A stretch of 64,000 bases of DNA from an uncultured Acidobacteriia bacterium. GTDB lineage: Bacteria > Acidobacteriota > Terriglobia > Bryobacterales > Bryobacteraceae. Location of the stretch: the NCBI GenBank assembly GCA_903923395.1, contig CAIXXM010000166.1, positions 1-64,000 of the forward strand, read 5' to 3'. A program made the position numbers and the translations under genes. Of the stretch, positions 35,484 to 37,002 are shown piece after piece. The notes beneath the pieces were generated by a model, which was not told the DNA's origin, did no database searches, and saw nothing but the letters and a program-made list of their open reading frames with translations. Every line of letters starts with the position of its first letter. The first letter of the stretch is position 1.

Positions 35484-35538
35484 AACGCAAAATATTGCGC
35501 GTCTTGACATTCCAGGGCAAGAAAACGCAAAATATTGC
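35484..35538 (+). repeat. Two identical 15-bp direct repeats, candidate HipB operators
   Basis: AACGCAAAATATTGC occurs at 35484-35498 and again at 35524-35538, exactly 40 bp apart. Each copy contains the dyad GCAA-N4-TTGC. The second copy covers the putative -10 region of the hipB promoter and ends two bases before the ATG. Spacing near four helical turns would allow two repressor dimers on one face. HipB-type antitoxins typically repress their own operon this way. Confidence 0.65.
35504..35533 (+). promoter_or_regulatory. Candidate promoter of the hipBST-like operon
   Basis: A perfect -35 TTGACA (35504-35509), then an 18-base spacer, then CAAAAT (35528-35533, four of six). Transcription would start near 35540, almost at the ATG, so the hipB message may be leaderless. 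The site lies between and over the two 15-bp repeats, which suits autoregulation. Confidence 0.5.
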
Positions 35539-35540
35539 TT

Positions 35541-35798
35541 ATGGAGGTCATTCCTCACCTCTCCGAAAACCTTATTGATCGAAGGAAAGCCCGCGGCCTC
35601 TCGCAGGCGCAACTCGCCCAGGCGGCAGGCGTCAGCCTCCGGACCATCAGTTCCCTCGAAAACCGTGGCAGCCACGACCTTGGGTTCCGCAAACTCACCC
35701 GCATCCTCTCCGCGCTTGGTCTCGAACTGCGGCTCCACGAGGCCAACACACAGCGCCCCACGCTGGACGATCTTTTGAACGAGTCCGCAGATGATTAA
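35541..35798 (+). CDS. hipB: HipB-like helix-turn-helix antitoxin/repressor
   Basis: An 85-residue DNA-binding protein of the HipB type. It has an HTH_3 fold over about residues 8-62 (NLIDRRKARGLSQAQLAQ, then GVSLRTISSLENRG as the recognition helix) and a short acidic C-terminal tail (DDLLNESADD). In HipBA and HipBST systems this protein represses the operon and forms a complex with the kinase. The ATG at 35541 was taken rather than the TTG two codons before. No ribosome site precedes it, which fits a leaderless start. The end overlaps the next gene by eight bases. Confidence 0.85.
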   Translation: MEVIPHLSENLIDRRKARGLSQAQLAQAAGVSLRTISSLENRGSHDLGFRKLTRILSALGLELRLHEANTQRPTLDDLLNESADD

Positions 35799-36114
35799 GA
35801 TATGGACCGATAACGCCGAAGCTGGATTCCTGGACCGCCTGGGAACCCGCGGCACCGCGTTTGTCTATCCGCCTGGAACCGACCCGCAACGCGGCGTCTC
35901 CGTCACCATGCCGGTGCGGCTCCCCAGCTATGACACTCCCTACGGCTTGGCGCCGATCTTCGAAATGGGTCTGCCGGAGGGTGCCTTACGGGAACATCTG
36001 CGTCTTGCCTTCGCCAAAGCCGCGGGGGCCTTCGATGATTTCAGCCTGCTCACCCTGATTGGCCGCTCGCACATTTCCCAGCTCCGGTATACGGGCGGGG
36101 AACAAACGCTCTGA
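35791..36114 (+). CDS. HipS-like protein (HipA N-terminal subdomain as separate chain)
   Basis: A 107-residue protein that corresponds to the N-terminal subdomain of HipA kinases. It opens with a small beta sheet (MIKIWTDNAEAGFLDRL) and ends with the typical LPEGALREHL and LLTLIGRSHISQLRY segment. In tripartite HipBST systems this part is a separate protein, HipS, which acts as the antitoxin of HipT. It overlaps hipB by eight bases. The stop TGA (36112-36114) is in the same reading frame as the following kinase gene, with only two codons (GAC GAG) before that gene's GTG. So it could also be the front part of a hipA broken by one nonsense codon. Confidence 0.75.
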   Translation: MIKIWTDNAEAGFLDRLGTRGTAFVYPPGTDPQRGVSVTMPVRLPSYDTPYGLAPIFEMGLPEGALREHLRLAFAKAAGAFDDFSLLTLIGRSHISQLRYTGGEQTL

Positions 36115-36120
36115 GACGAG

Positions 36121-37002
36121 GTGCCCTTCCAATCAGTCGATGAGATTCTCTCGGCGCGGCGCTCCGAAGGCCTTTACCGCTACCTGCTGGAACGCTTCGC
36201 CGCTTACTCCGGTGTGAGTGGTGTGCAGCCGAAAGTTCTCATCCGGGACGAAACGGCGACGCTGCAGCGTGTCTCCCCCAGCCACAAAGGCGCAACCCAC
36301 ATTGTGAAGTTTTGGGATGATCCCGCCGATTTTCCCCAACTCGCAGCGAACGAATACTTCTGCCTGAAAGCAGCGGAGCGTGCCGGTTTCGAAGTGCCCC
36401 GTTTTCGCCTTTCTGACGACGCCTCCGCGCTGGTAATTGATCGCTTTGATCTTCGTGCCGATGGCACTTACCGGGGCTTTGAAGACTTCTGTGTGCTGAA
36501 CGCGCGGTCCACCGCGGAGAAGTACCGGGGCAGTTGTGAGACCGCCCTGTTGAAGCGCTTCCAGCAGTTCGCCAACTCCAGGAAAGTGATGAATGACCTG
36601 GAAACGCTCTATTCACTGATTGTTTTCAACTGCGCCATTCGGAATGGCGACGCGCACCTCAAAAACTTCGGCATTCTCTATGACGATGTGCAGGGCGAAG
36701 CGCGCCTCGCCCCGGCATACGATCTGGTCACCACAACGGCCTACATTCCCGTGGACGCGATGGCGCTCACTCTGAACGGGAGCACCAACTGGCCATCCCG
36801 GAAGGAGTTGCAGCGCCTGGGAGAAACCCGGATTGGACTCGCGCCGTCACAGGTCCGGCGGATTTTCGAACGGATTGGGGATGCTCTGGCCGATACCGCG
36901 AAGGACCTGGAAGCCTATAGGAGAGAGCACCCCGCTTTCCATGAAATTGGCAACCGGATGTTAGAGGTCTGGCGAAACCATGACAAATCGAAAAATGATT
37001 GA
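36121..37002 (+). CDS. HipT/HipA-like serine-threonine kinase toxin
   Basis: A 293-residue kinase with the HipA fold. Gly-rich autophosphorylation loop GVSGVQPK (about residues 31-38), ATP-binding Lys63 in HIVKFW, catalytic loop NGDAHLKNF with Asp177, and metal-binding Asp201 in APAYDLV. All key residues are present, so the kinase should be active. Known relatives phosphorylate aminoacyl-tRNA synthetases (GltX by HipA, TrpS by HipT), which stops translation. Of the two serines of the SxS loop known in HipT, the second (Ser33) is kept and the first position is Gly; another Ser lies at 30. The GTG start is the first start codon after the in-frame TGA; GAGACGAG just before it is a poorly spaced ribosome site, so coupling to hipS is likely. 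Confidence 0.8.
   Translation: MPFQSVDEILSARRSEGLYRYLLERFAAYSGVSGVQPKVLIRDETATLQRVSPSHKGATHIVKFWDDPADFPQLAANEYFCLKAAERAGFEVPRFRLSDDASALVIDRFDLRADGTYRGFEDFCVLNARSTAEKYRGSCETALLKRFQQFANSRKVMNDLETLYSLIVFNCAIRNGDAHLKNFGILYDDVQGEARLAPAYDLVTTTAYIPVDAMALTLNGSTNWPSRKELQRLGETRIGLAPSQVRRIFERIGDALADTAKDLEAYRREHPAFHEIGNRMLEVWRNHDKSKND

What the first reader, a model, noticed from the sequence alone, without database searches (positions are those of the whole stretch)
35541..37002. HipBST-like operon whose kinase frame is divided by one in-frame TGA
hipS (35791-36114) and hipT (36121-37002) are in the same reading frame, separated only by TGA GAC GAG before the GTG. Read through, they give one HipA-like chain of about 403 residues. 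The kinase keeps its ATP Lys, catalytic Asp and metal Asp. Three readings are possible: a true tripartite HipBST system; a hipA broken by a nonsense mutation and now working as two chains; or programmed TGA readthrough giving both forms. It could be an early stage in the origin of HipBST from HipBA.
Basis: partly seen in the sequence, partly recalled or inferred. Interest (0 to 1): 0.8.

Follow-up and report, generated by a model that had tools for sequence, protein, structure and literature searches.

The report
Toxin kinase gene with private stop
A soil bacterium's toxin-antitoxin gene for a HipA-type kinase carries one stop codon that none of the compared relatives have, so it is most likely an ordinary two-gene module with a recently damaged toxin gene, although the cut falls between two protein domains and might still give two working chains.

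Summary
In detail: hipB (35541-35798), hipS (35791-36114) and hipT (GTG 36121-37002) lie as described, and one in-frame TGA (36112-36114) divides a 403-codon HipA frame.

Relatives settle the origin. Of 81 distinct loci holding both halves, 80 relatives read straight through the junction; only the window has a stop. Spacing is unchanged, so a private substitution is the simplest account. hipT's GTG is the family's conserved Val codon (Val in 67 of 71 relatives) with no ribosome site.

HipBST hallmarks are missing: Ala instead of HipS Trp65, and Gly where HipT has Ser57. Two HipBST-type loci of the same phylum have the Trp and overlapping genes in different frames. Programmed readthrough lacks support, although the genome has tRNA-Sec.

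Best reading: a hipBA module whose hipA took a recent nonsense change, probably silencing the toxin. Not excluded: two working chains. The stop lies in the interdomain loop, 6 nt before the GTG, and the kinase half looks constrained while the N-terminal half has lost otherwise invariant residues (Fisher p 0.01-0.06). A sequencing error cannot be ruled out here.

The parts
35484..35498 (.). operator-like box 1, AACGCAAAATATTGC, near-palindromic
   Evidence: identical to box 2, 40 nt apart; same two-box, 40-nt layout upstream of hipB in 49 of 71 relatives with enough upstream DNA, with a different box sequence
35504..35533 (+). sigma-70-like promoter TTGACA-18-CAAAAT between and overlapping the boxes
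   Evidence: consensus scan; not proof of function
35524..35538 (.). operator-like box 2, AACGCAAAATATTGC
35541..35798 (+). hipB, HTH antitoxin/autorepressor (85 aa; overlaps hipS by 8 nt)
   Evidence: HTH_3 2.7e-11; TIGR03070 1.4e-16, below its curated cut-off; a hipB was found upstream in 73 of 73 full loci, window included
35791..36114 (+). 'hipS' = N-subdomain 1 of HipA (107 aa), ends at the private TGA
   Evidence: Couple_hipA 2.1e-12
36112..36114 (+). in-frame TGA; no stop at this column in 71 of 71 aligned relatives (69 sense codons, 2 gaps)
36121..37002 (+). 'hipT' = HipA core kinase (293 aa from GTG); the GTG is the conserved Val of the VPFQS motif
   Evidence: HipA_C 2.7e-49; Val in 67 of 71 relatives

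Best explanation
This is a hipBA toxin-antitoxin module of an Acidobacteriota (Bryobacteraceae-type) chromosome in which hipA has recently been interrupted by one nonsense substitution in the loop between its N-terminal subdomain and its kinase core. Shown: HipB gene, two-box operator layout, intact kinase motifs, single private stop at unchanged spacing. Inferred: before the stop it worked as other HipBA modules do (HipB represses through the boxes and holds the kinase HipA); now ribosomes mostly end after 107 residues, little kinase is made because the downstream GTG has no ribosome site, and the locus is mainly a silenced toxin with a still-present antitoxin/repressor.
For: 80 of 80 distinct relatives with both halves are open through the junction, the window alone has a stop. 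In 71 relatives aligned the stop column holds varied residues (D, Q, H, N and others; 2 gaps) and no stop. Spacing from Met to the VPFQ Val is 330 nt in the window and in most relatives (71 of 81 loci). In 399 genomes of the class, 35 hold the gene and only the window's open frame is short (295 aa against 342-443). The GTG is a conserved Val codon (Val in 67, GTG in 25 of 71 relatives) and the anti-SD pairing before it (-2.7 kcal/mol) is weaker than at the same internal place in most relatives (65 of 71 are as strong or stronger). Other truncated copies of this family exist: L016/L073, L017/L084, L018/L098 and L096 lack N-terminal parts, L110 lacks the C-terminal part.
Against: A random stop would fall in the 14-residue interdomain loop only about 3-4% of the time (14 of 403, inference). 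The kinase half keeps 75 of 76 columns that are invariant in 59 close relatives, and there is no further stop or frameshift, so a long-dead gene is excluded; only a young break fits. A whole-gene pseudogene should relax both halves alike, but the N-terminal half departs more (5 of 36 against 1 of 76).
Confidence: 0.6

Rival explanations
1. A young functional split: ribosomes that end at the TGA restart at the GTG 6 nt on, giving HipS-like and HipT-like chains that reassemble, so the module works like HipBST by parallel origin.
For: Stop in the loop (residues 102-115) between N-subdomain 1 and the kinase; hipB-hipS overlap by 8 nt, so coupling already exists upstream; 6-nt gap is within the range where coupling is reported, with about 20 nt nearly abolishing it (PMC10666635, abstract); kinase half constrained and N-terminal half most divergent of 60, with residues 60, 94 and 96 changed that are invariant in 71 relatives.
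Against: No ribosome site, no shift of start codon beyond the old Val codon. Gly96, changed here, is kept in the family and, by eye, in the HipS of L112/L114 and in K-12 HipA. The separate-branch test does not single out the N-terminal half (S/T branch ratio rank 55 of 67). hipB is also among the two most divergent of 60, so the N-terminal changes may be older co-divergence with HipB and operator. Fisher p runs from 0.013 to 0.056 by threshold and taxon set.
Confidence: 0.22
2. Sequencing or assembly error: the TGA is not in the organism.
For: Single base-level difference from a sense codon would suffice; private to this one assembly of 169 contigs; no second assembly of the species was found in the searches made.
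Against: Frame otherwise clean; no indel at the site; the other same-frame neighbour pairs checked in the window are not broken genes. No reads were available.
Confidence: 0.13
3. Programmed readthrough of the TGA (as selenocysteine or by near-cognate tRNA) gives both short and full-length HipA.
For: The genome has a tRNA-Sec with anticodon TCA.
Against: The RNA after the TGA folds no better than shuffles (z +0.9 and +1.4); none of 69 relatives with a residue at the column has Cys; relatives encode one chain without a stop.
Confidence: 0.04
4. A long-standing member of the HipBST family (HipT clade III).
For: Gene order B-S-T and sizes match (for O127: 107, 103 and 335 aa).
Against: Nearest 80 relatives are all fused; no HipS Trp65; Gly at the HipT Ser57 place.
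Confidence: 0.01

Closest known systems
hipBA modules of Acidobacteriota, with relatives in Nitrospira and Alphaproteobacteria (e.g. L004/L019, L005/L023, L022)
   Same: 68-67% amino-acid identity over the read-through chain to the two nearest in the family, hipB upstream, same domain layout, same two-box operator spacing, same Gly-rich loop S-G-(I/V/L)-S/A-G
   Different: Window has an in-frame stop; HipB, operator boxes and N-subdomain 1 are unusually divergent
HipBST of E. coli O127 (PMC6581861, PMC10627512, passages seen)
   Same: Gene order HTH - N-subdomain - kinase; division at the same domain boundary
   Different: In O127 hipS and hipT overlap by 1 nt; HipS uses Trp65 and HipT Ser57/Ser59; window has Ala65 and Gly141, a gap of 6 nt, one shared frame, and fused relatives
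HipBST-type loci of the same phylum, L112 and L114
   Same: HTH, HipS-like and HipT-like genes in order
   Different: hipS overlaps hipT by 14 and 4 nt in a different frame, PEGW in HipS, S-I-S or T-L-S before G-V-Q; kinases only 35-37% identical to the window's
E. coli K-12 HipA (PDB 3dnv and others)
   Same: Best Foldseek matches of the read-through model (3.0e-16); domain order
   Different: About 20% identity; phosphoserine Ser150 place is Gly in this family

Membership tests
HipBST (HipT clade III) | hipS and hipT are separate genes, conserved as such among relatives | tested here: not met
   80 of 80 distinct relatives with both halves are one open frame
HipBST (HipT clade III) | HipS bulky residue at position 65 (Trp in many, Pro in some; PMC10627512 passages) | tested here: not met
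   Ala65 in window; V, A, F, M, Y, E, S or R in 71 relatives
HipBST (HipT clade III) | S-aliphatic-S motif in the Gly-rich loop (a large fraction of HipT) | tested here: not met
   G141-V142-S143; Gly141 in 71 of 71 relatives; 141 aligns with HipT residue 57
HipBST (HipT clade III) | placement in clade III of the Hip tree | not tested
   no clade III sequences were put in a tree; phmmer scores to HipT(Lp), HipA(K-12) and HipT(O127) are 55, 51 and 41 bits
HipBST (HipT clade III) | HipS alone neutralises HipT | not testable with these tools
   needs expression in E. coli K-12
HipBA | HTH antitoxin gene upstream and overlapping, operator boxes | tested here: met
HipBA | HipA core kinase motifs (Lys, catalytic Asp, metal Asp) | tested here: met
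   K173, D287, D311 present, 71 of 71 relatives
HipBA | one-chain HipA with N-subdomain 1 fused to the kinase | tested here: not met
   both domains present but divided by TGA; it descends from hipBA rather than being an intact member
Selenoprotein gene | SECIS-like hairpin after the TGA and Cys in homologues | tested here: not met
   fold z +0.9 and +1.4; no Cys in 69 relatives with a residue

The most novel reading that the evidence does not exclude
A natural, recent and independent splitting of hipA into HipS-like and HipT-like chains by a single stop at the interdomain loop, with the kinase still under selection and the N-terminal piece already released from some of its old constraints: HipBST organisation arising in parallel, caught early.
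Probability: 0.22. Interest if true: 0.65.

Novelty: new member of a known kind. Interest (0 to 1): 0.28.

Why it matters
If it is a dead allele it is routine decay of a toxin gene. If the two pieces still work, it is a one-step natural example of how HipBST could arise from HipBA: Gerdes et al. leave open whether the gene was split or merged (PMC8262856 section 7). Either way it gives a simple, testable pair: this locus beside its fused relatives.

Tried and rejected
Conserved split: rejected, 80 of 80 distinct relatives with both halves are fused. Frameshift or indel as cause: spacing unchanged in 71 of 81 loci including the window; partial matches at contig ends and small differences account for the other ten. 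Selenocysteine: tRNA-Sec is present, which was against my expectation, but no hairpin and no Cys. Own ribosome site for hipT: none. Prophage or plasmid origin: viral contigs gave no match to P0003 (close relatives only), plasmids gave matches below 60% identity. Neutral-decay bound: in a simulation, P(no further stop) is 0.70, 0.34, 0.17 and 0.04 at 1, 3, 5 and 10% neutral divergence, so the break is young or still selected. Empty-site test by the neighbouring nitroreductase: 15 of 18 other genomes of the genus had only 40-57% identical hits, too distant to call orthologues, not followed. L002, a second HipA_C hit of the genome, gave no match to the hipT query. The papers seen: PMC8262856 abstract, part 1 of section 3, sections 7 and 17; PMC10627512, PMC6581861 and PMC11487325 passages; PMC10666635 abstract; the rest only as listings. 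An earlier count gave the Val count as 68 of 71; the recount without the window is 67 of 71.

Full report
Observation. hipB runs 35541-35798, hipS 35791-36114 and hipT from GTG 36121 to 37002, and hipS and hipT share one frame with a single TGA between. Pfam gives HTH_3, Couple_hipA and HipA_C. The genome is 6.15 Mb in 169 contigs. Members of the same family of genomes are, by identical hip sequences, records named Bryobacterales, Bryobacteraceae and Sulfopaludibacter, so the window is Acidobacteriota of that group (inference).

Origin of the division. All 17 matches in 237 genomes of the family were listed; genome contigs gave 80 kept of 88 confirmed relatives. After identical copies were dropped, 81 of the 116 loci then held contain both halves: 80 are open between the halves and one, the window, has a stop. 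The loci left out were duplicates, lacked a hit to one half, or were distant homologues (listed). The distance between halves is 330 nt in 71 of 81. In the alignment of the window with 71 relatives (one of 73 full loci was dropped for Ns) the stop column holds D, Q, H, N, E and others, 2 gaps and no stop. In 399 genomes of the class, 35 have the gene and only the window's frame is short. The plain conclusion is one private nonsense substitution in a hipA.

Is hipT set up as a gene? Its GTG is the conserved Val of VPFQS: Val in 67 of 71 relatives, GTG in 25. Pairing with the anti-SD is weak (-2.7 kcal/mol), and 65 of 71 relatives are as strong or stronger at the same internal place without needing it. 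hipS itself is also weak (-2.5), and overlaps hipB by 8 nt, so the operon may rely on coupling. A 6-nt gap could allow restart: PMC10666635 (abstract) reports that about 20 nt nearly abolishes it.

Regulation. Two identical 15-nt near-palindromes 40 nt apart flank a TTGACA promoter. The best box pair has 40-nt spacing in 50 of 72 upstream regions examined, the window included; the observed mean score is 20.3 against 15.8 (maximum 19) in 29 shuffles. The window's boxes (CGCAAAATATTGC) differ from the family's CCTAATATATTAGG yet match each other, and its HipB is among the two most divergent of 60 (one relative's HipB came out empty there by a fault of my extraction). This suggests that operator and repressor changed together and stayed functional until recently (inference).

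Selection. Among columns invariant in 59 close relatives, the window departs in 5 of 36 in the N-terminal half (N60G, R69H, D85S, Q94H, G96S) and 1 of 76 in the kinase half (Fisher p 0.013); with all 71 relatives 3 of 15 against 1 of 45 (p 0.045), and at a 97% threshold p is 0.056 and 0.019. No other close relative has more than 3 such changes in the N-terminal half. Mean identity to the others ranks the window most divergent of 60 for the N-terminal half and fourth for the kinase half. Against a special effect on the N-terminal half: its tip branch ratio is rank 55 of 67. So the kinase half shows no sign of decay, while the N-terminal half is unusual, either because it was released after the split or because it had co-diverged with HipB before. 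A simulation shows that a clean frame stays likely only for a young break.

Structure. The read-through model (mean pLDDT 76, but about 50-60 around the loop) puts the stop in the coil between strand 99-101 and helix 116-121, between N-subdomain 1 and the kinase. Foldseek's best matches are K-12 HipA, then HipT.

Comparison with HipBST. Position 65 is Ala (Trp in many HipS). The residue aligned with HipT Ser57 is Gly, as in 71 of 71 relatives. L112 and L114, HipBST-type loci of the same phylum, have PEGW and genes overlapping in different frames; L113 and L115 were not resolved. The window is therefore not a HipBST member; whether it works like one is open.

Readthrough. A tRNA-Sec is present (76.6 bits, TCA anticodon), but there is no hairpin after the TGA better than shuffles, and no relative with a residue there has Cys.

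Verdict. Recent nonsense allele of hipA in a hipBA module (0.60), two working chains (0.22), sequencing error (0.13), readthrough (0.04). In the searches made I saw no report of a hipA split by a single stop.

Noticed in passing
window 35484-35538 and upstream of hipB in relatives such as L049, L011, L013: HipB operator layout of two palindromic boxes 40 nt apart is kept across the family while the window's box sequence has changed in both copies at once.
   Followed up: partly
window 36208-36234 (residues 140-148) and 71 relatives: Gly-rich loop is S-G-(I/V/L)-S/A-G-V-Q-P-K: the HipA Ser150 / HipT Ser57 place is Gly in 71 of 71 relatives, with an invariant Ser one residue earlier, so autophosphorylation may use another serine.
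   Followed up: partly
L112 and L114: HipBST-type loci in other families of Acidobacteriota, with HipS PEGW and S-I-S or T-L-S loops.
   Followed up: partly
L117:1501-1595: The window's genome has a tRNA-Sec (anticodon TCA), so it may make selenoproteins.
   Followed up: no
L110, L016/L073, L017/L084, L018/L098, L096: Truncated copies of the same hipA family in other genomes (C-terminal or N-terminal parts missing), showing repeated decay.
   Followed up: partly
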